Assembly (NCBI GenBank): GCA_902584915.1
Contig: CACIBQ010000006.1
Coordinates: 1-34,059, forward strand
Origin: an uncultured Pelagibacteraceae bacterium
Lineage (GTDB): Bacteria > Pseudomonadota > Alphaproteobacteria > Pelagibacterales > Pelagibacteraceae
DNA length: 34,059 nt
Direction: 5' to 3'
Positions 21,375 to 34,059 of this stretch are shown here, in pieces. The notes under the pieces are model-generated. The model saw only the letters and a program-made list of their open reading frames with translations, searched no databases and was not told where the DNA came from. Position numbers and translations under genes: made by a program. Every line of letters begins with the position of its first letter. Within the stretch, counting starts at the first letter, position 1.

Positions 21375-22571
21375 ATGACAAAAAACTCACTTAAAAACGG
21401 ACCTGATGAATTTGGATATTATGGAGAATTTGGCTCTAGGTATGCTCCTGAAATTTTAATGCCAAATTTAATTGAATTGGAAGAAGCGTTTAATGATGCA
21501 ATTAATGACAAAAAATTTTTAGATGAGTTTAATTATTATTTAAAAGAATGGATTGGTAGGCCAAATCCACTGTATTACGCCGAACAGCTTACAAAAAAAG
21601 TAGGTGGAGCAAAAATATACTTCAAATCAGATCATTTAAATCATTTGGGCGCCCATAAGGGGAATAATGCATTATTCCAAATTTTATTAGCTAAACGTAT
21701 GGGCAAAAAAAAAGTTCTTTGTGAAACGGGTGCTGGGGCTCATCTGATTGCAACGGCAGCAGCTTGTGCGTTTAAGGACCTTCCTTGTATTGGTTACATG
21801 GGGCGAGATGATATTTTTTTACAATCTACTAATGTTTTAAAAGCAAAGTTATTTGGTGCAAAAGTAATAGAATGTGTTGATGGTACAGGAGAAAAAGGCG
21901 TTCTAAAAGACGCATGCACATCTGTTTTAAAAGCATGGTCAAGTGACCCTGATGCCTTTTATTGTTGTGGCAGTGCAATTGGACCACATCCTTTTCCTAG
22001 AATTGTACAGTATGCACAATCAGTGATTGGTAAAGAAATAAAAGAACAAATTTTAGAAAAAGAAGGCAGATTACCAGATGCCATATGTGCATGCATAGGT
22101 GGGGGCTCAAACCTGATCGGGGCAATACATGAATTTTTAGATGATAAAGAAGTTAAACTATACGGTGTTGAACCAGAACACAGTGCTGCTTTAACTAATG
22201 GTACAGTTGGTATTATGCAGGGATTTAAATCTTTTATGTTGCAGTCAGAAACAGGGGATTCCACTCTCGCGACTCAAAGTTTAGCTAGCGGGATTAATTT
22301 TTATAGTGCTGGTCCAGAACATGCATACTTAAAAAAAATTAAAAGAGTAAACTATACTCATGTCTCGGATAAAGAGGCTTTTGATGCTTTTCAACTTGTA
22401 TGCAAAACCGAAGGTATTCTTATTGCATTTGAACCAGCATTTGCAGTTGGATATGGAATAAAATTAGCAAAAGAAATGGGTAAAGATAAACTTTTGGTTT
22501 TAAATATCTGTGGCAGAGGTGATAAGGACATTGATACTGCGGAGAGAATTTTGGGAGATAAACTTGAGTGA
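21375..22571 (+). CDS. trpB: Tryptophan synthase beta chain
   Basis: EFGSRYAPEILMPNL, GRPNPLYYAEQLT, LNHLGAHKGNNAL (PLP Lys), ETGAGAH, GGGSNLIGA, GRGDKDID. Confidence 0.93.
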   Translation: MTKNSLKNGPDEFGYYGEFGSRYAPEILMPNLIELEEAFNDAINDKKFLDEFNYYLKEWIGRPNPLYYAEQLTKKVGGAKIYFKSDHLNHLGAHKGNNALFQILLAKRMGKKKVLCETGAGAHLIATAAACAFKDLPCIGYMGRDDIFLQSTNVLKAKLFGAKVIECVDGTGEKGVLKDACTSVLKAWSSDPDAFYCCGSAIGPHPFPRIVQYAQSVIGKEIKEQILEKEGRLPDAICACIGGGSNLIGAIHEFLDDKEVKLYGVEPEHSAALTNGTVGIMQGFKSFMLQSETGDSTLATQSLASGINFYSAGPEHAYLKKIKRVNYTHVSDKEAFDAFQLVCKTEGILIAFEPAFAVGYGIKLAKEMGKDKLLVLNICGRGDKDIDTAERILGDKLE

Positions 22572-23373
22572 TAGAATTAAAAAAATTTTTAAAAATTTAA
22601 AAGAAAAAAATAACAAAGCTTTAATTAGTTTTTCAGTTGCAGGTTTTCCAGATGACCAAACAAGCTTGGAGATATGTAAGGTACTATCAGATAGTGGAGT
22701 ACATATTCATGAGCTTAACATGCCACATGCTGAAGCTCAAGCAGATGGTCCAATTATTCAGCTTGCAAATATAAAGAGTATAAAAAAAGGTATTAATTTA
22801 GATAAAATATTTATGATTGCAGAAAAGCTAAGATTACATAATCCAAATTTAGGTATTTGTTTAATGGGCTATCTTAATAATATATTTATTTATGGGATAG
22901 AAAAGTTTGCAGAAAAAGCTAACAAGGCTGGTGTTGATGCGCTAATTTGTGTCGATCTTCCAGCTGATGTTAAAGAGGAAAAACAAATAAGAGATGCGCT
23001 AAAAAAAGTTGGTATTTCTCTTATTAAATTAATTACCCCAACAACTAATGAAAATAGAATTAAAGAAATTACGATGGATGCAGAAAGTTTTATCTATTCT
23101 GTTAACTTAAAAGGGATTACAGGAGTAAAAACAGTTCAGGTTAATGAAGCAAATCAACAAATTGATAGAATTAAAAAATATACAAATTTACCAATTGTAT
23201 CTGGTTTTGGCATAAAAAATCCACAAGATGCAAAAGAAATTGCAAAAAGTAACTGTGATGGTGTAGTTGTAGGATCACAAATTGTTAAGTATATTCAAGA
23301 AAATATCGATGACAAAAATTTACCACAAAAAGTCGGTAGTTATGTTAAAACATTTGTAGAGGTATTAAAGTGA
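22564..23373 (+). CDS. trpA: Tryptophan synthase alpha chain (probable TTG start overlapping trpB)
   Basis: LSDRIKKIFKNLK, ALISFSVAGFPD, HELNMPHAEAQADGP, LMGYLNNI, TPTTNENRI, DGVVVGSQIV. ORF track start at 22510 lies inside trpB. Confidence 0.9.
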   Translation: MSDRIKKIFKNLKEKNNKALISFSVAGFPDDQTSLEICKVLSDSGVHIHELNMPHAEAQADGPIIQLANIKSIKKGINLDKIFMIAEKLRLHNPNLGICLMGYLNNIFIYGIEKFAEKANKAGVDALICVDLPADVKEEKQIRDALKKVGISLIKLITPTTNENRIKEITMDAESFIYSVNLKGITGVKTVQVNEANQQIDRIKKYTNLPIVSGFGIKNPQDAKEIAKSNCDGVVVGSQIVKYIQENIDDKNLPQKVGSYVKTFVEVLK

Positions 23374-24329
23374 ATTGGATAAGCAAAATTAAGCAGTTTG
23401 GTGAAAACATAAAAAAAAATATAAAAAAGAAATTTCCAACTGCGGAGGAGCAGGAGGCCTCGAAGTGGAGGGCTCAAAATTGCTGCAATTCCGGGCCTGT
23501 GCTCGAAGAAGAACTTAAAGAAAATTTTTATCAATGTAAAAACTGTAATGATACTTACCCAGTTACTCCTGAACAACGTTTCAGCTGGATGTTTTTAAAT
23601 AACCAATATGAAATTTTAGATCATCCAATTATTAATAATCCAGAAACGCATGAGTGGGAAGATGCATCTGGAAAATATACTGATAAACTAAAAAAAACTA
23701 GAAAAAAGACAGGATTGAATTCAGCTCTAGTTGCTGCTTATGGAAGTCTCACTGAAAACTTAAAAGCAGTAGTGGTGGCAAGTGATTGGAGGTACTTTGG
23801 GTCTTCGATTTCTCCAGACGAGGGTGAATGTCTTCTATATGCATGTGAAAAAAGTATTTCAACTAACTCACCTCTAATTATTTTTGTACAAGGCGGCGGG
23901 ATGCGTGTAAATTTCCCTCTAACTTTAAGTTTAAACCAAATGCCAAGGTCAATTATTGGAATTAATGAAGTAAAGCAAAAAAATTTACCTGTGATTAATG
24001 TTGTCGACAAAATAGCAGCTGGAGGAATATCTGCAAGTTATTGTTCTACTTCTGATTTTTTAATTTTCGAAGGTGTGAAATCTAGAATAATGTTCGCCGG
24101 GCCCAGAGTTTCGGCAAATGCGAGCAACACTACTCCGCCGCCGAATTTTTTAGAAGCATCATGGGCATTAAAACATGGTATTGGAGATTTTTTGATTGAA
24201 CATAGAAAAGATACGAAAGATACCTTGGTAAAACTACTTAACATATTGTTAAAAATAGATACTAGTGTAAATTCGGTTTCATTGGATGAAACTTCAGAAC
24301 CTAATCTTACAGCCAAAGAAGCATCTTAA
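23370..24329 (+). CDS. accD: Acetyl-CoA carboxylase carboxyltransferase subunit beta (divergent, GTG start)
   Basis: YTDKLKKTRKKTGLNSALV, LIIFVQGGGMR, AGGISASY, MFAGPRV, HGIGDFLIEHRK; trpA-accD-folC order. Confidence 0.87.
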   Translation: MNWISKIKQFGENIKKNIKKKFPTAEEQEASKWRAQNCCNSGPVLEEELKENFYQCKNCNDTYPVTPEQRFSWMFLNNQYEILDHPIINNPETHEWEDASGKYTDKLKKTRKKTGLNSALVAAYGSLTENLKAVVVASDWRYFGSSISPDEGECLLYACEKSISTNSPLIIFVQGGGMRVNFPLTLSLNQMPRSIIGINEVKQKNLPVINVVDKIAAGGISASYCSTSDFLIFEGVKSRIMFAGPRVSANASNTTPPPNFLEASWALKHGIGDFLIEHRKDTKDTLVKLLNILLKIDTSVNSVSLDETSEPNLTAKEAS

Positions 24330-24347: not shown

Positions 24348-25604
24348 ATGATTAACTCGGAAATCTATTATAAATATCTTCAAAAAAAATACAGCAGAAG
24401 TATTTCTTTAGGCTTATTTAGGGTTAAGAGGGCTCTAAGGTTATTAAAAAACCCCCATTTAAAATTAAAAAGGCCCTGCAATATAATAGGAAGTGACGGG
24501 AAATTCACTTGTCTTAGAGCAATTCAATGTTTCATTGAAGCAAACGGTAATACTACAACAGCAAATTTTTCACCTCATCTTTACGATCTTAGAACTCGAT
24601 TCTGGTTAAAAAATAGATTTATTTCTCTTAAAGAAATTAAAAAATATGAAAAGAAAATATCAAAATTAAAAATTAAATTAAGTTTATTTGAGGTTTTAAC
24701 TTTAATCCATATCCTGGCGGCATCTAAGGAGAATGCTGATTTCTCATTGCAAGAATCAGGTCTTCTGTTTAAAGGAGATGCGTCGAGAGTCTGGGATAAA
24801 CCATTTATGCAGATTTGTACTAACTTAAATAAGCAGCATCTTGAATGGGTTTATCCTAAAACAATTAATGAAATTTGCAGGCAAAAAGTTGGATATATGA
24901 GCAATAATACAAATATCTATATAGGTAAACAAAAACCAAAAGTATTAGGAATAGTTAAGAAAATACTTAAAAAAAATAATAGTAGTATTACATATCCCAC
25001 AACTTGGAAAATTATAAATAAAAATAAAAAAATTTTTTATAAAGACAACAAAAATTTAATTAAAATTAATTCTAAATATATTTACAGTAAAGGATTAGTT
25101 GACAATCTAGGTTTAGCAATAAAAATTGCGTTAGATTTAAATATAAAAAAAAAAATAATTGAAAGAACTATACCTACAATTAAATTTGAAGGGCGTTTAG
25201 ATTATATTAAATCAGGTAAATTAAGAAAATATTTAAATAAAAACGAAGCTCTACTCTTGGATGGGGCTCATTCAAATACTTCAGCACAAAACTTATATAA
25301 TCATCTAAAGACTTTAAATGGACCTATCTATGGAGTTTGGGCTATGCAAAGAAATAAAATGCCATCAAAATTTTTAAAAAATTTCCATGGTATATTTAAA
25401 AAAATAATAACAATGAAAATTGATAGTGAGCCAAACTCTTGTACTGCTGAAGAACTTAGAGAAATTGCTATTAAGAAAGGATATTCTGTTGATAAAGAAA
25501 AAAATATTCAAGATGCTTTAAAAAAGTTAAGTTCCAATAAAGCAAAAACAATTTGTGTTTTTGGAAGCTTATACCATGTAGGGTATGTATTAAGTAAAAA
25601 TTAA
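24348..25604 (+). CDS. folC: Folylpolyglutamate synthase/dihydrofolate synthase
   Basis: IIGSDGKFTCLRAIQCFIEANG (P-loop region), LYDLRTRFWL, KFEGRLDYI, LLLDGAHSNTSAQNL. Confidence 0.87.
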   Translation: MINSEIYYKYLQKKYSRSISLGLFRVKRALRLLKNPHLKLKRPCNIIGSDGKFTCLRAIQCFIEANGNTTTANFSPHLYDLRTRFWLKNRFISLKEIKKYEKKISKLKIKLSLFEVLTLIHILAASKENADFSLQESGLLFKGDASRVWDKPFMQICTNLNKQHLEWVYPKTINEICRQKVGYMSNNTNIYIGKQKPKVLGIVKKILKKNNSSITYPTTWKIINKNKKIFYKDNKNLIKINSKYIYSKGLVDNLGLAIKIALDLNIKKKIIERTIPTIKFEGRLDYIKSGKLRKYLNKNEALLLDGAHSNTSAQNLYNHLKTLNGPIYGVWAMQRNKMPSKFLKNFHGIFKKIITMKIDSEPNSCTAEELREIAIKKGYSVDKEKNIQDALKKLSSNKAKTICVFGSLYHVGYVLSKN

Positions 25605-25924
25605 CTTATATTACTTTCGATCCAAGATTTTAAATCAGACTTACTTGTCAATCCAACCTTAGTATCTTTAAGCTGTCCATCAACATGCAGAATCATCGTT
25701 GGAATCCCTCTCACATTATATTTTACTGGGATATTTGGCTCTTCATCAATGTTATGTTTTGAAATCACAACACCTTTATCTTTTAATTCTTCTGAAAGCT
25801 CCTCAAGAATCGGAGCAATATTTATGCAAGGTTTGCACCATGTGGCCCAAAAGTCATGCAGAATAATCTTATTTTCTTTTATTAGATTTTCAAAATTGTC
25901 GTCTGTAGACTTTATTGTTGCCAT
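25601..25924 (-). CDS. trxA: Thioredoxin
   Basis: DFWATWCKPCINIAPILEEL active site; VRGIPTMILHVDG. Confidence 0.95.
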   Translation of the reverse strand: MATIKSTDDNFENLIKENKIILHDFWATWCKPCINIAPILEELSEELKDKGVVISKHNIDEEPNIPVKYNVRGIPTMILHVDGQLKDTKVGLTSKSDLKSWIESNIS

Positions 25925-25979: not shown

Positions 25980-27116
25980 TTAATTCACAATACTTTTTAT
26001 CTTTTTTTCTTCAGCATCTTCTAAATCTGGAACAATTTTTTCATCTTCTGTTGTAGAATAAAGTTTGGAACCTCCTTCTAGACCGTGATCATCTTTTAAT
26101 TTGACAATCAAATTTTCAAGTCCACTCTTTTTAGCATATGTACTATCAATTAATGCCTGAAAGGCATTTCTGTGTGTCTTAAAGCTAGAAAATAATGTTT
26201 TAATATTGTTTCTTACAACTGTGTATTTATCCCAAACTGCCTCAGCATCTTTTACAACATTATCAACAATTGAAATTTGTTTGTGCTGATTTTTAAGACT
26301 TGTAACGTTTGCAATTAAAGCCATTATTGATATTGGGCCTGCCAAAATAACCTTATTTTCTGCAGCAAAATCTAGCAATTCCTTGTCATACTCAATTGCA
26401 GACAAATAACATGTATCAAATGGCATAAACATAATTACATATTGAAAAGACTTTAAATTATATAGTTTAGTATAATTTTTTTTTGCAAGACTTTTGATGT
26501 GATCCCTAACTGATGCTAAATGTTTATTTATATGCGCACTTCTAAATTTTGGATCTTTTTCATTAGCAAAATCCTCAAAGTTTTTAAGTGAAACCTTGCA
26601 ATCAATAACAATACTATTTTCTTCGGGAAGAGTAATTATAAAATCAGGATTTACTCTTTTGCTTAATCCTGTAACTGGATCTTTATTAATTTGTCCCTCT
26701 CTAACTGTAAAGTCTTGATCTTTAACTAATCCATTTTTTTCAAGCAACCTTTGTAATTTTTTTTCATTGTATTCACCTTGGTATTTAACATTACCAACCA
26801 ACTTTTCATGAAAGTTTCTATACTCTTGAACTAAAGTAGTATACTCTTGAAAACTTTTATCAGAAACCTCTTTGTAACCAGCTGCATTTTTAGAATTTTG
26901 TTCCAAAACCTGTTTATCTTTTTTTAGTTGCTCAATATAATCATCTTTAATGGTCATTGTATTTTCAAGAGTTTCAATCTGACTATCTAGTCTAATAATT
27001 TCAGGACTATCTTTGTCTATGATATTTTTATTTTTTAGATTTTTTAATATGTAAAAAATTAAACCTCCTAAAATTAATGCCAAAATAATTACTGTAAATG
27101 ATAGAATTGTTGTCAT
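25980..27116 (-). CDS. rmuC: DNA recombination protein RmuC family
   Basis: N-terminal TM plus coiled coil; GEYNEKKLQRLLEKNGL, NPDFIITLPEENSIVIDCKVSL, MFMPFDTCYLSAI. Confidence 0.92.
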   Translation of the reverse strand: MTTILSFTVIILALILGGLIFYILKNLKNKNIIDKDSPEIIRLDSQIETLENTMTIKDDYIEQLKKDKQVLEQNSKNAAGYKEVSDKSFQEYTTLVQEYRNFHEKLVGNVKYQGEYNEKKLQRLLEKNGLVKDQDFTVREGQINKDPVTGLSKRVNPDFIITLPEENSIVIDCKVSLKNFEDFANEKDPKFRSAHINKHLASVRDHIKSLAKKNYTKLYNLKSFQYVIMFMPFDTCYLSAIEYDKELLDFAAENKVILAGPISIMALIANVTSLKNQHKQISIVDNVVKDAEAVWDKYTVVRNNIKTLFSSFKTHRNAFQALIDSTYAKKSGLENLIVKLKDDHGLEGGSKLYSTTEDEKIVPDLEDAEEKKIKSIVN

Positions 27117-27132: not shown

Positions 27133-28722
27133 TTAGTTTTTCATTAAATGCGACCACTCTTTAGAATATTTTTGAACACTCTTATTATTATCAATACACT
27201 TTTGTATTAATACAGTAAGTGAGTCACTAAACTCTCTTGATCCATCGTCGTGACCTAATGAATGAGATAGTTCATGCAAAAATACAGACATCATCTTACC
27301 AAACGATTCGTTAAATAAAGTTTTATGTAAATAAATCAATTTTGAATTATGATCTGAAGAATTTTTTAATTCCCCTAAAATATCCTTACAGGTTATAGTT
27401 CTAAATTTTACTTCATACAAAGGATCATCATATTCATCACCTGAGAATAACTTTGAAAAATTTGGACTAATACGCTTTGCTGCCTCAAAACAAAAGTTAA
27501 TAGCTTTCTTTTCTCTGACAGTTAACTCCATTGTTTTTTTATTTTTAATTCTTTTTTCAGCTGCTTTTTTATTTTTGATGAATTTATCTAGTGCAGATTC
27601 TACACCAAAGTTTGTAAAATATGCGGGCAGTAACTTTTTATTTTTTTTTTCTTTATTTGTTTTTTGTCTTATCCAGTTTTGAACTTTAGTAGAAAACCAA
27701 TCATTGTAAGATATTTCTCTACTCCAAGTCCATCTGGACTCAGCGTAAAAACCTTCTTTAAATAGTTCTTTTAAATACTTATCATCTTTTAATCTTCCAT
27801 ATGAGTTTGTTGCAATTGAACTTAACAATAAATGGCCAGTAGACCATATATCTTTAGAATTTTCTAAAATATATCTTATGGCAACATTTCCAGGTAAATC
27901 CATGTAATAAAAACCAGATCTTGCGAATATCGAAAAAAATGTACTTTGTAATTTTGTATCGAATGCTTGTCGGTCCCGGTCTATCTTTGTTTTCTTCTCT
28001 AGAGCACTATAAGCTTTATCTATTGAAATAATGACGGGTATTCCTTTAATATCAACTCTTTTTAAACCTTTATAAAATCCGTATCCATTTTTTTCTGTAG
28101 ATTTATAAATTGTAATATCATTATAAGAATGCAGGACTTCACCTATAACTGGGTTCTTTGAGTAAAAAAAGTTTCTCAAACCAAATTGAAAACTTTTTTT
28201 CAACTTTTTATCAATTGTATTTATAATTAAATAATTTCCATCAATTTTATTTATTTTAAAATAATTATAAACTAATGGTCTTAATTCTGTTTCAGGAACT
28301 TCTTTCCCAACAGTAATAATTAAAGCTTTGTCACCAGATAACAAAATAGGATTAAAAATTCCTATTCTTGCTAAATCTGAAAAACATTTCTTAATTCCTT
28401 CGCCATGAGCACCGATTTGTCTGTATGACTTTTCCGATTTATTTGACCCTATATAATATAGTCTTTCTAATGAATATTCATTTGGAGCATGGACTTTGAC
28501 TTGATCGTCTTCTGTTTTGATTTTAATTTTATCTATTCCAATGTTAGCTTCTACACAACCATCGACCATATTTTGGAGACAATCTCTACTTAATTTATCA
28601 TGATCCCATACTTCTTCACCCCAAGCTGTAGTTACCGCACTTTCTACACTTTTAATATACTCGGCTTTATTGACTTCTTTTAGTTCTAAAAGCAAATCTT
28701 TTAATTTTGAAATATTATTCAT
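27133..28722 (-). CDS. Putative GHKL-like ATPase fused to zinc metallopeptidase domain
   Basis: N-terminal DCLQNMVDGCVEAN (N-box-like) and IGAHGEGIKKC (G-x-x-G-x-G-like); C-terminal HELSHSLGHDDGSREF (HExxH at 27276-27262). Confidence 0.65.
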   Translation of the reverse strand: MNNISKLKDLLLELKEVNKAEYIKSVESAVTTAWGEEVWDHDKLSRDCLQNMVDGCVEANIGIDKIKIKTEDDQVKVHAPNEYSLERLYYIGSNKSEKSYRQIGAHGEGIKKCFSDLARIGIFNPILLSGDKALIITVGKEVPETELRPLVYNYFKINKIDGNYLIINTIDKKLKKSFQFGLRNFFYSKNPVIGEVLHSYNDITIYKSTEKNGYGFYKGLKRVDIKGIPVIISIDKAYSALEKKTKIDRDRQAFDTKLQSTFFSIFARSGFYYMDLPGNVAIRYILENSKDIWSTGHLLLSSIATNSYGRLKDDKYLKELFKEGFYAESRWTWSREISYNDWFSTKVQNWIRQKTNKEKKNKKLLPAYFTNFGVESALDKFIKNKKAAEKRIKNKKTMELTVREKKAINFCFEAAKRISPNFSKLFSGDEYDDPLYEVKFRTITCKDILGELKNSSDHNSKLIYLHKTLFNESFGKMMSVFLHELSHSLGHDDGSREFSDSLTVLIQKCIDNNKSVQKYSKEWSHLMKN

Positions 28723-29020
28723 TTTCTCCTCTTAATTGGTTTATTTTTTTTGTTTCGTCTAATTCGTCTTGAATTACTTTCATTAAAGTTACTCCTTTAT
28801 TATAAATATGAGCATCTCTCGAATCCTCTATATATTTAAATATTTTCAAAGGTAGAAAATAAATAGAAAGCAATAATTTTAAAAATTTTCTCTCCGAGTA
28901 ATATTTTTTTTTTGCCTTTTCAGTTATTGATTTATGGAAGAAATATAAATCCCAATCATTTTTCCACATTTTATAAAAAATCAATCTTTCTTTTAAAATA
29001 TTTTTATATTTATTTTGCAT
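28715..29020 (-). CDS. Hypothetical protein, basic/aromatic
   Basis: 101-aa ORF, overlaps the downstream gene by 8 nt, same orientation. Confidence 0.6.
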   Translation of the reverse strand: MQNKYKNILKERLIFYKMWKNDWDLYFFHKSITEKAKKKYYSERKFLKLLLSIYFLPLKIFKYIEDSRDAHIYNKGVTLMKVIQDELDETKKINQLRGENE

Positions 29021-29021
29021 A

Positions 29022-29231
29022 TTAATATTGAATGTATCCTTTATTGATTTTTTCTCTTATTTTCTTATCAGCAAATTTTTTTGCCTCTTGCTCGTTTATA
29101 AATTCTTTGATTTGTTCTTGTGGATTTTGAATTCCAATTCTTCCAAAAACAACTTTAACTAAAATACCTTTATGTGATATTTCCCAAAATTTATTTGAAA
29201 TCTCGTTTTTAAATTCAAAATATTTTTTCAT
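29022..29231 (-). CDS. Stand-alone WGR-domain mini-protein
   Basis: KFWEISHKGILVKVVFGRIGIQNPQEQIKEFINEQEAKKFADKKIREKINKGYIQ matches WGR domain pattern; GGAGG ribosome-binding site at stop of upstream ORF. Confidence 0.75.
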   Translation of the reverse strand: MKKYFEFKNEISNKFWEISHKGILVKVVFGRIGIQNPQEQIKEFINEQEAKKFADKKIREKINKGYIQY

Positions 29232-29290
29232 TTTAACCTCCTATATTTATTTTTTTTGTGATCTGATGATTTATTGTCTGATATTCCCTT

Positions 29291-29415
29291 CTCAGGGGAA
29301 CTTTGACATTCTTTATGGAAGAACTAGTAACTTCAAAGATTATCAATTGTACAGCCTGGGTAAGACAAGCGAGAAAGGATAATAGCCCAGATTGTACTTT
29401 GTTCCCCTTTTTGAG
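29291..29415. ncRNA. Candidate structured RNA / leader element (three-way-junction-like)
   Basis: P1 AGGGGAAC 29294-29301 / GTTCCCCT 29401-29408 (+CTC/GAG); P2 TTTGA 29302-29306 / TCAAA 29333-29337 with inner TTCTT/AAGAA hairpin 29309-29323; P3 GTACAGCCTGGGT 29349-29361 / GCCCAGATTGTAC 29385-29397. Confidence 0.45.
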
Positions 29416-29535
29416 AGCGCTTATGAAAGGTAAAAAATTAGTTTTTTTTCTAGAAGGAGTTTTGACAGAAAGTAGAACAGAAAGGATCTCCCCCTTATTC
29501 AGCAAACTAATTATTTTTTTTATCATATTCCTAGT

Positions 29536-29561
29536 TTTATACCATATTTAAACGCTGTCAA
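29536..29561 (-). promoter_or_regulatory. Candidate promoter for the WGR/GHKL unit
   Basis: Minus strand TTGACA (29561-29556), 14-nt spacer, TATAAA (29541-29536); the spacer is short. Confidence 0.4.
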
Positions 29562-29575
29562 CAGTTATTTTTGAT

Positions 29576-29603
29576 TTGACAATTTTTTTTTACACGGTAT
29601 AAA
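29576..29603 (+). promoter_or_regulatory. Sigma70-type promoter for the 504-aa protein/ExoI unit
   Basis: TTGACA 29576-29581, 16-nt spacer, TATAAA 29598-29603; ATG at 29622. Confidence 0.65.
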
Positions 29604-29621
29604 CAGTATATATAAAGAATC

Positions 29622-31136
29622 ATGGATATTAATAAATTAAATAAAGTAATACGCTCAATTAGTGAAAAGACTAAAAACCGTGAGTTATTAGAAAAAATTC
29701 TTAAAAAGTGCGGTATGAGTCGGTCAAATTGCAGTAATTTGATGGTCTATAAACACGGTTCTTCTTTTGACCACTATGTTTATAGGTATAAAGAAGATCA
29801 ATTCCCACCCGAGTTTTCATATTTGTTTCTTAATGCAGCTTTTGCATCTCTTTATAATAAAAATGCCAAGAAAGTAAGAAATAAAAAAAAATCTTGGGAA
29901 TATGTTAAGAAAAACATAAATCAACTTTGGCACAATCAAAGTCTAGATTTTTTTAATGTTATTTCTGACTGTACGAATTTAGATATAAAAAAGAAACTTA
30001 TAATGCCAGCGCTAGAGTTTCATGCTTTAAATTTAATTAGATTAGGAAATTTGGATCAAAGCAAAGAGTACAATAAGGATTTTGTAGAAAGCTACCTAAG
30101 AATTGCTTGCTCAGATGCCTTTGACTATATCGAGGAGTCTGATCAAGAAAATTTTCAAAATGAGTTATCAACTCAAAAATTTAAACAATATGAGGAGTTA
30201 ATCAAAAACCTTAGAAATTTTTATCCTATTATAGAATATCTTCGTAATTTTTTTATGAAAGATTTTTTAGCACCTAACGAATACAAAAAAATAAACATTG
30301 TTAATTCTAAAATTTCTAATGATAGATATGAAACAATTGTTCTATCAAAAGAATTCCTAAGAAATGAACTGGGATTATCAGATCTAAAAAATATATTTAT
30401 GTTAAATATTGAAGATGATAATATGAAAGGGAATTTTGAAATAAATGATAAAGTTTTAATTAAAAAACATCCTAGCTATATTAATAATGAAAATAATAAA
30501 ACTCTTACAACAAGCTCATATAGATTTAAGAATGGGGTTTATGCAATTAAAATTCCAGATATTAAACTTGGCTCCTCTGGTAGAGCTAAAGATCAAAGAA
30601 TAACAGAAAAAATAGTAGTTAGAAGATTACAATTTATATATCCAACGGAACACTGGAGAGATTATGAAGTACCTGAATTTCTTGAAAAAGAAATCAATAA
30701 AGAAATCAATAAAGTTTTTGAAAAAGGATTGAAAAATGTAAAACTATATGAAGTGGATAGATTAGTAAATAAATATGGTGCAGGAAATCCTTTATTAGTC
30801 AAAAAATTGAAACCACTTATAAATCTAGAAGAAAGTCAGAATGATTACTTTTATGGTAATAAAGTTCCAAAACAAAGTAATCATAAAGTCATAGTAAATA
30901 TTATTAGTGATGATAATAAATACCCTCCAATTTCAATTAACTTGGATGTCTTGCCTATTGTTGGTGAGGTTTTATGGAAATCCAGTAGCTACAAAGATAA
31001 ATTTCAAGATAAGAAGAATGAGACTTCTGACGAATCATTAGAGACTAAAAATTTATTTTTAGATGAAACTAAACCAGACACAGATAAATTTTTTGATTTT
31101 TTATATGACAAAACAAAACTTAAGGAGATAGCTTAA
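29622..31136 (+). CDS. Hypothetical protein containing a degenerate LexA/S24 peptidase-like domain
   Basis: FLRNELGLSDLKNIFMLNIEDDNMKGNFEINDKVLIKK...NGVYAIKI...KIVVRRLQFIYP aligns by eye with the S24 pattern GDSM(E/K)P..GD.VLV...VYA......VKRLQ. Confidence 0.6.
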   Translation: MDINKLNKVIRSISEKTKNRELLEKILKKCGMSRSNCSNLMVYKHGSSFDHYVYRYKEDQFPPEFSYLFLNAAFASLYNKNAKKVRNKKKSWEYVKKNINQLWHNQSLDFFNVISDCTNLDIKKKLIMPALEFHALNLIRLGNLDQSKEYNKDFVESYLRIACSDAFDYIEESDQENFQNELSTQKFKQYEELIKNLRNFYPIIEYLRNFFMKDFLAPNEYKKINIVNSKISNDRYETIVLSKEFLRNELGLSDLKNIFMLNIEDDNMKGNFEINDKVLIKKHPSYINNENNKTLTTSSYRFKNGVYAIKIPDIKLGSSGRAKDQRITEKIVVRRLQFIYPTEHWRDYEVPEFLEKEINKEINKVFEKGLKNVKLYEVDRLVNKYGAGNPLLVKKLKPLINLEESQNDYFYGNKVPKQSNHKVIVNIISDDNKYPPISINLDVLPIVGEVLWKSSSYKDKFQDKKNETSDESLETKNLFLDETKPDTDKFFDFLYDKTKLKEIA

Positions 31137-32599
31137 TGGAACAATTTACTTGTTACCTAGATGCTGAAACAACATCAGGATCACATATTAATGCAGATTT
31201 ACTCTCCTATTCTGCAATACTAGTAAGAGATAAAGACTTAAAAATTGTTGATAGTATTGATTTATTTGCTCGACCTAGAATTTCAAGGTCATATGAGTGT
31301 GATGCACTATTAGTCAATGGTTTGGATCCATATGACATATATGACAAAGAAAAACATACTTATAGTAATCACGGCATTGCAAAAAAACTAAGTGAAACTT
31401 TTACAAAATGGAAAAATAAAGGCCACGTCAAATTTAATGCTTATGCAGGATTTAATTTTGACTTCTTATTAACTTCTCACACATTGTTTTCAAATTTATA
31501 TAGTTTTCCATGGTTATTTTCTACAAATGCTTGTCAGATGGATACTCTCCCTCTTGCAAGAAACATGGAATATTATAATCCAAATATATTAAAGACAGAT
31601 ATAAATAAAAAAAATCACAAAATTTTTAAACTAACTTCTTTATGTGCGATGAACGGTTTTCCTATTAAAGATTCACATACAGCCAAGGATGATACGCTAG
31701 GTTTAAAAAATTTAACTGAGTATTTAAAAAAAAATGATAGTGAACTATTTAATAAAAATTTACAATTTATTAACAAAAAAGATGTTTTACCTTATGTGAA
31801 AAATCTCAAATACTTTTATACCACTGAAACATTTTTTTCAAAAACAAGGCAGTTTGCATGCTGTTTTTTAACAGAGCATAGTTTCTACGCTGGGTATATA
31901 CTTGCTTTTGATCTAAAGCATAACCCAAAAGATATATTTGAGGGTAAAAGCAATCAAGAATTGTCAAAACTTCTTTTTGCAACACCTGTGAAAATGAGAA
32001 CTATAAAATCAAATAGACTTCCTTTAATTTTAAAACCTGAAGAAAAATGGGTACAAAGTATACAAGATGAATATTCAGCTATTGGAAAAGGTGAGCTTGA
32101 AAAAAGGGCTGACTATATAATTAAAAATAGATCTGAGATTTCAACTAAAATTAATTTAATATTAAAAGATAAATTTGAAGAAAAAAATTTAGACCAAACA
32201 AAACTAAAACCAGAAGAAAAAATATTTGCCTTAAAACCTTCTAAAGATACTCAAAGATATATGAATGACTTTGTCATAGCAAATAAAATGGAAGAGAAAC
32301 AAAGAATTGCAAAAAACTTTGAAGGTGATGAAGATTTAAAACATCTATCTGAGTTAATTTTGATTGATGAATATGGCAAAGATGCTTTTGCTGATAAAGA
32401 CTATAAAAGAATTAGAAAAGGTATAAGTCAAAGACTGCTTTCTACTAATAATGAAAGTTATCCTACAATACCTTCTCAATTTTTAAGAATTGATGAAATT
32501 AGAGTACAAGAAAAACATGACAAAGAAAAATTAAAAAAAGTTGAATTAATTAATAGTCATTTAGAAAAAATGTCTGAAGACCATGAAAAATATCTATGA
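31136..32599 (+). CDS. Exodeoxyribonuclease I-like DEDD exonuclease
   Basis: CYLDAETTSGS (D-x-E), LFARPRISRSYECDALLVNGLDPYD, AYAGFNFDFLL, KDSHTAKDDTLG; overlaps the upstream stop/start (taatg). Confidence 0.75.
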   Translation: MEQFTCYLDAETTSGSHINADLLSYSAILVRDKDLKIVDSIDLFARPRISRSYECDALLVNGLDPYDIYDKEKHTYSNHGIAKKLSETFTKWKNKGHVKFNAYAGFNFDFLLTSHTLFSNLYSFPWLFSTNACQMDTLPLARNMEYYNPNILKTDINKKNHKIFKLTSLCAMNGFPIKDSHTAKDDTLGLKNLTEYLKKNDSELFNKNLQFINKKDVLPYVKNLKYFYTTETFFSKTRQFACCFLTEHSFYAGYILAFDLKHNPKDIFEGKSNQELSKLLFATPVKMRTIKSNRLPLILKPEEKWVQSIQDEYSAIGKGELEKRADYIIKNRSEISTKINLILKDKFEEKNLDQTKLKPEEKIFALKPSKDTQRYMNDFVIANKMEEKQRIAKNFEGDEDLKHLSELILIDEYGKDAFADKDYKRIRKGISQRLLSTNNESYPTIPSQFLRIDEIRVQEKHDKEKLKKVELINSHLEKMSEDHEKYL

Positions 32600-32787
32600 C
32601 AATAATTAATTCAGAAAAAATAGAAATAGAAATTCAAGAACAGAAAATTGAGAAACCGGGAACTAAATATCTAGTTTTGGTTAAAACAAACAATAATGAA
32701 CTTAAAATATATTCATCTAATAATAAACCTTGCGTTAGAAATACTGAAGATTTAGGAAATATTGTAAAAGAGAAAATTATCTCTTAG
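32596..32787 (+). CDS. Small hypothetical protein
   Basis: 63-aa ORF with ATG overlapping the previous stop (atga). Confidence 0.5.
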   Translation: MTIINSEKIEIEIQEQKIEKPGTKYLVLVKTNNNELKIYSSNNKPCVRNTEDLGNIVKEKIIS

Positions 32788-33463
32788 AAACCATCTCATA
32801 GAAAAGGTCTACCCTTTTCATAGCTTCTTCTTGTAGTTTTATAAATTCTTGTCCTTCCACTTCAAATTTTTGAAAGGTCAAATCTGTTGAACACATCAAA
32901 ATCACACCTTTAGAGATATTTGAGTTAAAAACTTTATTATGGGCCAAGGAATAGAGGGCCACTTGGAGCAGATATGAAGTAATCCATTCTTTTTTTTTTG
33001 GTGATCGAGAATTTTTAAAATCTAAGATCGCTTCTGCCCCAGAATAAATACCTACAGCATCACATGTTCCACTAAATTTGCTTGGATACCAGAGCGTTGC
33101 TTCCACACCATAAATTTCCGTAAATTTTTCTTTAATTCCATGTTCAATTATTTCATTAGCCATTTTTTCTGCTAAATTATCTTTTTCCAATAAATCTCCA
33201 TTTAAACGATTTGTTAAAAAATTTTCTAATATCTTATGTAAAGCTGCGCCGCGTATGGTCGCTTCATTTGATATTCTCTGACTCTCCTCTTTACCAACAT
33301 CTGCTTGCCATTTACGCAAAGCCTCTTTATCTTTTTCGGGCTTAGTAAGCTCTAATATTTCAGTACAACTTGGTAGTTTTTCATTATCTATAGAATAATA
33401 CCTCATTCCGTCAATTATGCTTCTGGATGATTTAGGGTAATTATATTTTTTATTCCACTTCAT
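32777..33463 (-). CDS. PD-(D/E)XK (RecB/MGME1-like) nuclease
   Basis: RGAALHKILENFL (motif His), FSGTCDAVG, AILDFKNS (D-x-K), YLLQVALYSLA (Q-x-x-x-Y). Confidence 0.8.
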   Translation of the reverse strand: MKWNKKYNYPKSSRSIIDGMRYYSIDNEKLPSCTEILELTKPEKDKEALRKWQADVGKEESQRISNEATIRGAALHKILENFLTNRLNGDLLEKDNLAEKMANEIIEHGIKEKFTEIYGVEATLWYPSKFSGTCDAVGIYSGAEAILDFKNSRSPKKKEWITSYLLQVALYSLAHNKVFNSNISKGVILMCSTDLTFQKFEVEGQEFIKLQEEAMKRVDLFYEMVSKR

Positions 33464-33528
33464 ATCTATTTAATATTTTAGTAAACTTAATTAATCAATT
33501 TCTTTTTAGTGGTAGGTTAAAGTTTAAA

Positions 33529-34059
33529 ATGGATAAGTCTGGATTTAAAAGCAAAAATCAATATGGTTCTTTTATTACTGACAACCCTATTGGGACACCA
33601 CCTCAGTATGAAACAATTGATTCTACTGAGGTAATAAAGATTAAAAAAAAACTTAAAGATTGTCCTGGATTAAATATATACGAGTATGGAAAAAAAGGAT
33701 CTGGAAGATATACTATTAAACTTAAAGTAGAGAAAGATGGCGAAATTATTCAGGAAGATCTAGCATATAGCAAAGATAATTTATCTACTATGTTAAAAAA
33801 ATACGATATCGCCGTGAAAACATTATTTCCTAACAGAATAACTGATAAAAAATTTAAAGAATTGAGATTATTAAATGACAAATTAACTGACTCAGAATTT
33901 GCAGATTTGTTAAATGAAAATGATTATTTAACTAATAAAGGAAACAAATTTACATCAATTAGTGCATTTAATTATAAAAAAAGATTGAAAATTGGTTCAT
34001 TAGGTCCAAGAAAATATAGAACAATAAAAGAAGCAAAAAATATTGTCATAGAAAAACTT
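33529..34059 (+). CDS. Hypothetical protein, truncated by window end, possible HTH/recombinase-like segment
   Basis: Open frame from ATG 33529 to window end: MDKSGFKSKNQYGSFITDNPIGTPPQYETIDST...DSEFADLLNENDYLTNKGNKFTSISAFNYKKRLKIG... Not in the ORF track because it lacks a stop. Confidence 0.65.
   Translation, partial: MDKSGFKSKNQYGSFITDNPIGTPPQYETIDSTEVIKIKKKLKDCPGLNIYEYGKKGSGRYTIKLKVEKDGEIIQEDLAYSKDNLSTMLKKYDIAVKTLFPNRITDKKFKELRLLNDKLTDSEFADLLNENDYLTNKGNKFTSISAFNYKKRLKIGSLGPRKYRTIKEAKNIVIEKL

What the first reader, a model, noticed from the sequence alone, without database searches (positions are those of the whole stretch)
27133..34059. Accessory island as a candidate composite nuclease/protease defence locus
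Immediately after rmuC the content switches from conserved genes to WGR, GHKL-protease, inactive S24, ExoI-like and PD-(D/E)XK proteins with shared divergent control and no recognisable transposase or integrase in the visible part. The combination of ATPase, protease, sensor domain and two nucleases does not match a named system I recognise.
Basis: inference. Interest (0 to 1): 0.6.

Follow-up and report, generated by a model that had tools for sequence, protein, structure and literature searches.

The report
SAR11 RmuC–ExoI–GHKL-protease nuclease cassette
Ocean SAR11 bacteria swap different nuclease-based gene sets in and out of one chromosomal spot, and this window carries a conserved but unnamed version that joins two DNA-cutting enzymes to an Hsp90-like protease, probably to destroy phage or other foreign DNA.

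Summary
The genes are real; the island was misdrawn. The window is one whole contig of a Pelagibacterales (SAR11) genome. RmuC, an exonuclease I (ExoI) and, in the same genus, a Cas4/MGME1-like nuclease are the usual residents of a chromosomal slot between trxA-folC and hisG-hisZ-hisS. What is accessory is a GHKL-like protein with a C-terminal HExxH zincin motif, p101, a stand-alone WGR protein and an HTH-like regulator whose S24 domain has lost its Ser/Lys dyad. Sixteen loci were found, in about 2.5% of Pelagibacterales genomes. All lie beside trxA-folC and all join the GHKL-zincin to RmuC and ExoI. In 13 of them (window included) RmuC and ExoI form clades of their own, separate from the resident alleles, so the cassette is inherited as a unit. 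GHKL, ExoI, WGR and p101 are under purifying selection. The same slot in relatives carries restriction-modification, Mza-like and Z1/DUF4420 genes. No hit in phages, plasmids or viral contigs, and no defence-library match to the GHKL protein. Best reading: an unnamed antiviral or anti-plasmid nuclease module that works like Shield (RmuC nuclease plus metallopeptidase). Defence is inferred, not shown; a resident DNA-repair or damage-response module is the main rival.

The parts
25980..27116 (-). RmuC nuclease (378 aa), N-terminal hydrophobic anchor, PD-(D/E)XK-type residues PDF...VIDCK kept; last gene of the leftward run
   Evidence: Pfam RmuC 5.3e-50; forms a clade with RmuC of the other GHKL loci, apart from resident RmuC (support 99); dN/dS 0.12
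27133..28722 (-). GHKL-like protein with C-terminal HExxH zincin motif (529 aa), the diagnostic gene of the cassette
   Evidence: AF2 model pLDDT 82; Foldseek PDB best TRAP1/Hsp90 6.6e-7, also MORC; invariant Q50 N51 D54, G104 G107 E108 G109, H483 E484 H487 D493 G494 F498 S499; dN/dS 0.03
28715..29020 (-). p101, small protein of unknown fold, 8-nt overlap with the GHKL gene
   Evidence: homolog at the same place in 12 other loci; dN/dS 0.15
29022..29231 (-). stand-alone WGR domain protein (69 aa), possible DNA-end binder
   Evidence: Pfam WGR 1.3e-14; present in 13 of 16 loci; dN/dS 0.06 to 0.10
29233..29560 (.). conserved divergent intergenic stretch with a 97-aa ORF on the - strand; coding status doubtful
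   Evidence: dN/dS about 0.8 and dS only 0.15; no Rfam match, folding z 0.18 (+) and -1.45 (-); occupied by a different ORF (sm150) in 10 other loci
29540..29621 (.). candidate divergent promoter/operator region: TTGACA on both strands, back to back 14 bp apart
   Evidence: read directly from the sequence; the consensus scan finds no more promoter-like sites than chance, so this is inference
29622..31136 (+). regulator with HTH-like N-terminus and a catalytically dead S24 domain (504 aa); first gene of the rightward run
   Evidence: PF00717 0.001, phrog_4 repressor 2.8e-7; orthologs in 12 loci; dS 1.18 against 0.37-0.51 in the large neighbours shows allele replacement
31136..32599 (+). Exonuclease I (SbcB) variant, 487 aa, DEDDh residues intact; start overlaps the regulator's stop by 1 nt
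   Evidence: PDB 1fxx 8.7e-32; PADLOC RTasSbcB 4.6e-22; own clade with ExoI of the other GHKL loci (support 100); dN/dS 0.03
32596..32787 (+). p63, small protein, 4-nt overlap with ExoI
   Evidence: conserved in L058, L059 and L062; dN/dS 0.08 to 0.16
32777..33463 (-). Cas4/MGME1-like PD-(D/E)XK nuclease (228 aa): usual resident of the slot in this genus, not specific to the cassette
   Evidence: matches in 48 of 101 relatives, none in the other family; beside ExoI in most g1 slots; PDB MGME1 7.8e-7
33529..34059 (+). ORF of unknown function cut off by the contig end; full length 260 aa in L059, followed there by p154 and hisG
   Evidence: 88% identical in L059; no domain hit

Best explanation
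The cassette is a nuclease-based defence module that sits in a variable chromosomal slot of SAR11 and makes use of that slot's nuclease pair. Proposed mechanism: (1) RmuC, held at the membrane, is the endonuclease that attacks incoming or replicating foreign DNA, and ExoI (with the slot's Cas4/MGME1-like nuclease or helicase-nuclease) degrades the ends. (2) The GHKL-zincin is the switch: its Hsp90/MORC-like clamp changes state when infection or DNA damage is sensed, and its HExxH peptidase then cleaves a partner, most likely the HTH/dead-S24 regulator (derepressing both divergent gene runs, since that regulator can no longer cleave itself) or RmuC (releasing or silencing it). (3) WGR and the regulator supply the sensing: WGR binds DNA ends, and the regulator is exchanged quickly. 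Shown here: gene set, conservation, own clades of RmuC and ExoI, purifying selection, key residues, genomic setting. Inferred: that the module is defensive, the peptidase target, the trigger and the order of events.
For: GHKL-zincin, RmuC and ExoI are together in 16 of 16 loci with three different partner sets. RmuC and ExoI of 13 loci form clades apart from resident alleles, and GHKL-linked RmuC comes from three separate places in the RmuC tree. One carrier (L067) nests among non-carriers in the folC tree (AU p 0.034); the cassette is inverted in L066 and a version occurs in another family (L070). Purifying selection on GHKL, ExoI, WGR and p101. The regulator is replaced gene by gene between cassettes whose GHKL is 97% identical. 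The slot in relatives holds type IIG-like restriction-modification (L060, L061), Mza-like TerB-MORC-Z1 (L058), Z1-DUF4420-MORC (L070) and PbeA-like genes (L052). Patchy: 10 of 397 Pelagibacterales. Precedent: in Shield the membrane-bound RmuC protein ShdA degrades DNA and stops phage, and a metallopeptidase, ShdB, controls it (PMC10270631); in VcSduA a GHKL domain is proposed to control a PD-(D/E)XK nuclease (PMC12137116).
Against: RmuC and ExoI are almost always in this slot, so co-occurrence is partly a matter of location, and GHKL-zincin was not found elsewhere in the order. No phage-resistance data. No hit in phage or plasmid records, so no sign of mobility beyond the slot. RmuC and ExoI are also housekeeping nucleases. 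WGR is missing in L068, L070 and L135. The GHKL DxGxG box is absent, so ATP binding is unproven. Carriers are few and mostly one folC lineage.
Confidence: 0.5

Rival explanations
1. Resident DNA-repair module with a damage-response controller. RmuC, the Cas4/MGME1-like nuclease and ExoI are SAR11's standing end-processing set; in this version the zincin cleaves the HTH/dead-S24 repressor after DNA damage, as IrrE/PprI cleaves DdrO, and WGR detects breaks. The function is repair of UV or oxidative damage, not defence.
For: RmuC and ExoI occupy this slot in nearly all Pelagibacterales examined, and ExoI is found, nearly always single-copy, in 86 of 101 relatives. The regulator has lost S24 self-cleavage and is divergently transcribed from the protease run. 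WGR is accompanied by BRCT in L136. PprI/IrrE-DdrO is a known protease-repressor pair that senses single-stranded DNA (PMC10904395).
Against: Alleles are replaced wholesale (ExoI 27-34% identical between versions in one genus), unusual for housekeeping repair genes. The slot also hosts restriction and Mza/Z1-type genes. Patchy, about 2.5% of genomes. No HTH family is found in the regulator.
Confidence: 0.3
2. Genes that share a hotspot but not a function: the GHKL-zincin/p101/WGR operon is an independent accessory system that landed beside resident RmuC and ExoI.
For: The slot hosts many unrelated accessory genes; RmuC and ExoI are always there; a distant GHKL-zincin (L074) has no RmuC or ExoI on its 8-kb contig.
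Against: RmuC follows GHKL on the same strand within 3-23 nt in versions A and B, and one gene later in L135; cassette RmuC and ExoI form their own clades and are found with GHKL in L067 and in the inversion in L066.
Confidence: 0.17
3. Remnant of a prophage, plasmid or integrative element.
For: Phage-like exonuclease and repressor families (phrog_298 5.5e-43, phrog_4 2.8e-7).
Against: No structural, integrase or replication genes; no tRNA in the window; no GHKL relative in phages, plasmids or IMG/VR; purifying selection; same chromosomal slot in all 16 loci.
Confidence: 0.03

Closest known systems
Shield (ShdA RmuC nuclease, ShdB M15-like metallopeptidase; Pseudomonas)
   Same: A membrane-anchored RmuC nuclease paired with a metallopeptidase in a chromosomal defence setting (PMC10270631).
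   Different: The peptidase here is fused to an Hsp90/MORC-like domain and carries HExxH, not an M15-like fold; ExoI, WGR and an S24-type regulator are added. Shield is reported only from Pseudomonas.
VcSduA / Shedu type I-D (GHKL ATPase N-terminus with a PD-(D/E)XK nuclease)
   Same: A GHKL-type domain proposed to control a PD-(D/E)XK nuclease (PMC12137116).
   Different: Nuclease and GHKL are separate proteins here and the domain fused to GHKL is a zincin; no DUF4263 hit.
IrrE/PprI-DdrO and ImmA-ImmR protease-repressor pairs
   Same: HExxH protease next to an HTH-type repressor that does not cleave itself (PMC10904395; ImmA-ImmR from own knowledge).
   Different: The protease here has no hit to the IrrE/ImmA domain and carries a GHKL domain; cleavage of the regulator is untested.
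PADLOC DRT-associated RmuC and SbcB (RTasRmuC, RTasSbcB)
   Same: The window's RmuC and ExoI match these two models (3.8e-45, 4.6e-22).
   Different: No reverse transcriptase in the locus; the matches reflect the RmuC and ExoI families.
Mza-like and Z1-DUF4420-MORC systems
   Same: GHKL/MORC-containing systems found in the same SAR11 slot.
   Different: Their MORC protein pairs with a Z1 helicase; the window has no Z1.

Membership tests
Shield | RmuC-domain nuclease | tested here: met
   Pfam RmuC 5.3e-50, PD-(D/E)XK residues present
Shield | M15-like ShdB, or ShdC, ShdD, ShdE partners | tested here: not met
   no M15 or Shield model hit in Pfam or PADLOC; the peptidase is a GHKL-zincin
Shield | phage protection by the RmuC protein | not testable with these tools
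   needs plaque assays
GHKL ATPase superfamily | Bergerat fold | tested here: met
   Foldseek hits to TRAP1/Hsp90 6.6e-7 and to MORC, though with low whole-chain TM-scores (0.23 to 0.29)
GHKL ATPase superfamily | N-box, DxGxG box, G2 box | tested here: inconclusive
   N-box-like (D/E)xxxNxxD and G2-like GxxGEG conserved; DxGxG absent in all ten aligned
Zincin metallopeptidase | HExxH plus third ligand | tested here: inconclusive
   HExxH invariant, D493-G494 invariant, R496 near-invariant; third ligand not identified; only a weak Peptidase_M48 match, 0.094, in L135
Exonuclease I (SbcB) | DEDDh catalytic residues with the ExoI-type C-terminal region | tested here: met
   1fxx 8.7e-32 over 367 positions; D9 E11 D109 H181 D186 invariant
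S24/LexA-type self-cleaving repressor | Ser-Lys dyad | tested here: not met
   Ser to Asn in DDNMKG, Lys to Arg in IVVRRL, also in L058 and L059
S24/LexA-type self-cleaving repressor | N-terminal HTH | tested here: inconclusive
   only a chance-level match to Aca1, 0.6; in L070 the regulator near ExoI hits HTH_3 at 4e-4, below cut-off
DRT (reverse-transcriptase defence) | reverse transcriptase | tested here: not met
   none in the locus
Prophage or integrative element | structural, integrase or excision genes | tested here: not met

The most novel reading that the evidence does not exclude
A so far undescribed SAR11 defence system in which an Hsp90/MORC-like clamp fused to a zincin peptidase is the sensor-switch that releases an RmuC + exonuclease I pair, controlled by a quickly exchanged dead-S24 regulator; SAR11 would then have defences of its own that current tools do not see.
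Probability: 0.35. Interest if true: 0.8.

Novelty: new variant of a known kind. Interest (0 to 1): 0.55.

Why it matters
SAR11 is among the most abundant bacteria in the sea and is heavily infected by pelagiphages, yet a DefenseFinder screen of 172 Pelagibacter genomes found only restriction-type systems, in 19 of them, and none in 14 bloom MAGs (PMC11066056). A conserved cassette missed by such libraries, in a fixed slot whose other versions include recognisable defence genes, gives a concrete place to look. The genome of HTCC9565 carries it (L062), so the idea can be tested in an isolate. Joining Hsp90/MORC, zincin, RmuC and ExoI would also widen the RmuC-nuclease theme known from Shield.

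Tried and rejected
Prophage/plasmid remnant: rejected. Structured RNA in the intergenic region: no Rfam match even at E 10, folding no better than shuffles on the + strand and only weakly on the - strand, no homolog beyond near copies; left open as a conserved leader. Real 97-aa gene there: not supported (dN/dS about 0.8). Transcription signals by consensus scan: not above chance. DRT system: no reverse transcriptase. HTH by profile search: chance level. A first structure model with 4 sequences was too poor (pLDDT 60) and was replaced by one with 15 (82). GHKL-zincin outside the order: one distant relative without RmuC or ExoI on its contig (L074) and one spurious fragment. Literature searches for RmuC with WGR, GHKL or SbcB found no matching system; most subscription papers and preprints are not held. 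No protein-protein interaction prediction was available, so the mechanism rests on precedent and anatomy.
Full report
What was checked. The window is a complete contig (G000:C6, 34059 bp) of a 61%-complete Pelagibacterales genome. Domain searches confirm WGR, S24-like, exonuclease I and PD-(D/E)XK. The 529-aa protein has no significant family hit; its model (pLDDT 82) resembles Hsp90/TRAP1 and MORC proteins and its C-terminus carries HELSHxxGxxDGxxxFSD. Ten aligned members down to 22% identity keep Q50, N51, D54, G104, G107, E108, G109, H483, E484, H487, D493, G494, F498 and S499. The standard GHKL DxGxG box is missing, so ATP use is likely but not shown.

The slot. In relatives the order is hisS-hisZ-hisG-rmuC-PD(D/E)XK-ExoI-trxA-folC-accD-trpA-trpB (same genus), or ExoI-rmuC-trxA-folC (another family). 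ExoI is found in 86 of 101 relatives, nearly always as one copy. In close relative L059 the far end is hisG, about 0.7 kb beyond the point where this contig stops.

The cassette. The GHKL-zincin gene was found in 13 further genomes of the GTDB collection, and two more divergent ones in a survey of the order: 16 loci with the window. All lie beside trxA-folC and all contain RmuC and ExoI. Version A (13 loci): [regulator, ExoI] divergent from [sm150 or the 97-aa ORF, WGR, p101, GHKL-zincin, RmuC, often p186]. Version B (L070, another family): XRE-like protein, ExoI, GHKL-zincin, RmuC on one strand. Version C (L135, L136): 97/103-aa protein, GHKL-zincin, ARPP-1, RmuC, ExoI, with WGR and BRCT proteins nearby in L136. 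Prevalence is 10 of 397 genomes of the order, the window's own included; 6 of 151 good ones.

Is it a unit? RmuC and ExoI of version A form clades with support 99 and 100, away from resident alleles. Version C and version B RmuC sit elsewhere in the tree, so GHKL-zincin has been joined to RmuC more than once. In the folC tree 12 version-A carriers are one lineage, but L067 lies among non-carriers (AU p 0.034), and in L066 the cassette is inverted. Because the slot always has RmuC and ExoI, co-occurrence by itself is weak; the clade pattern is the stronger evidence.

Selection and exchange. Against L058, dN/dS is 0.03 for GHKL and ExoI, 0.06 WGR, 0.12 RmuC, 0.15 p101, 0.07 PD-(D/E)XK. The regulator differs: its dS is 1.18 against 0.37-0.53 for GHKL, ExoI, RmuC and PD-(D/E)XK, and nucleotide identity falls from about 90% to 63-78% within the gene and recovers at both ends, so it was replaced as a gene. 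Its S24 residues are Asn and Arg in place of Ser and Lys. Other version-A members lack a recognisable S24 domain there.

Setting. Slots of relatives also carry a type IIG-like restriction-modification set (L060, L061), TerB-MORC-Z1 genes matching Mza models (L058), Z1-DUF4420-MORC (L070) and a PbeA-like helicase (L052). Ten of the other version-A loci also carry a Cas4-RNase H-helicase protein and a second PD-(D/E)XK protein.

Mechanism. The closest tested precedent is Shield: ShdA, a membrane RmuC nuclease, protects against phage, and a metallopeptidase, ShdB, holds it down. VcSduA gives a GHKL domain proposed to gate a nuclease. From these I propose a GHKL-zincin switch over an RmuC/ExoI effector, with the regulator and WGR on the sensing side. 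The cleavage target is unknown: the regulator (as in IrrE/PprI-DdrO) or RmuC (as suggested for ShdB). A resident DNA-repair module under such a switch explains much of the same evidence and is the main rival.

Verdict. A real, conserved, unnamed cassette; a credible defence candidate; not a member of Shield, DRT, Shedu or Mza by the features tested. The novelty is in the combination and the host, not in any single domain.

Noticed in passing
window 21375-24329 (trpB, trpA, accD): This block is only about 50% identical in DNA to close relatives L058/L059 while both flanks are 75-90%; its TrpB is 81% identical to that of G074 in another family and about 36% to most of its own genus, so the block looks replaced by exchange.
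   Followed up: partly
window 29233-29560: Conserved intergenic stretch with raised GC (31-37% against 17-27% on the WGR/p101 side) and unusually low synonymous divergence, whose 97-aa ORF shows no sign of protein selection; neither a clear gene nor a proven RNA.
   Followed up: partly
folC (window 24348-25604) and loci L058-L066, L068, L069: FolC of 12 cassette carriers is only about 28% identical to FolC of the other genomes, most of them of the same genus; flanking core genes seem to travel with the island.
   Followed up: partly
L059:12981-13172 against window 25601-25924: trxA identity drops to 57-69% in L059 between stretches above 84%, suggesting exchange of the thioredoxin gene; some phages use host thioredoxin, so this may be worth a look.
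   Followed up: no
L086, L106, L121 (for example L121:6757-8006): A sister RmuC (closest to the GHKL-linked RmuC) sits with three small unknown proteins (about 200, 89 and 91 aa) in the same slot: a possible further RmuC cassette.
   Followed up: partly
L052:3349-9825 (complete genome G012): Another version of the slot: p186 homolog, DUF2130, a 694-aa protein with a weak LRR match, sm150 homolog, ExoI and RmuC, next to a PbeA-like gene.
   Followed up: partly
L136:5574-6190: WGR and BRCT single-domain proteins encoded side by side near a version-C GHKL-RmuC-ExoI cassette.
   Followed up: no
L005:1444-4803 and orthologs: 1119-aa Cas4-RNase H-SF1 helicase protein, matching Mokosh MkoA at 7e-37, next to version-A and C cassettes.
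   Followed up: partly
L074:6353-7912: Distant GHKL-zincin (22-23% identical) from another family of the phylum, next to histidine kinase and response regulator-like genes, with no RmuC or ExoI on its 8-kb contig.
   Followed up: partly
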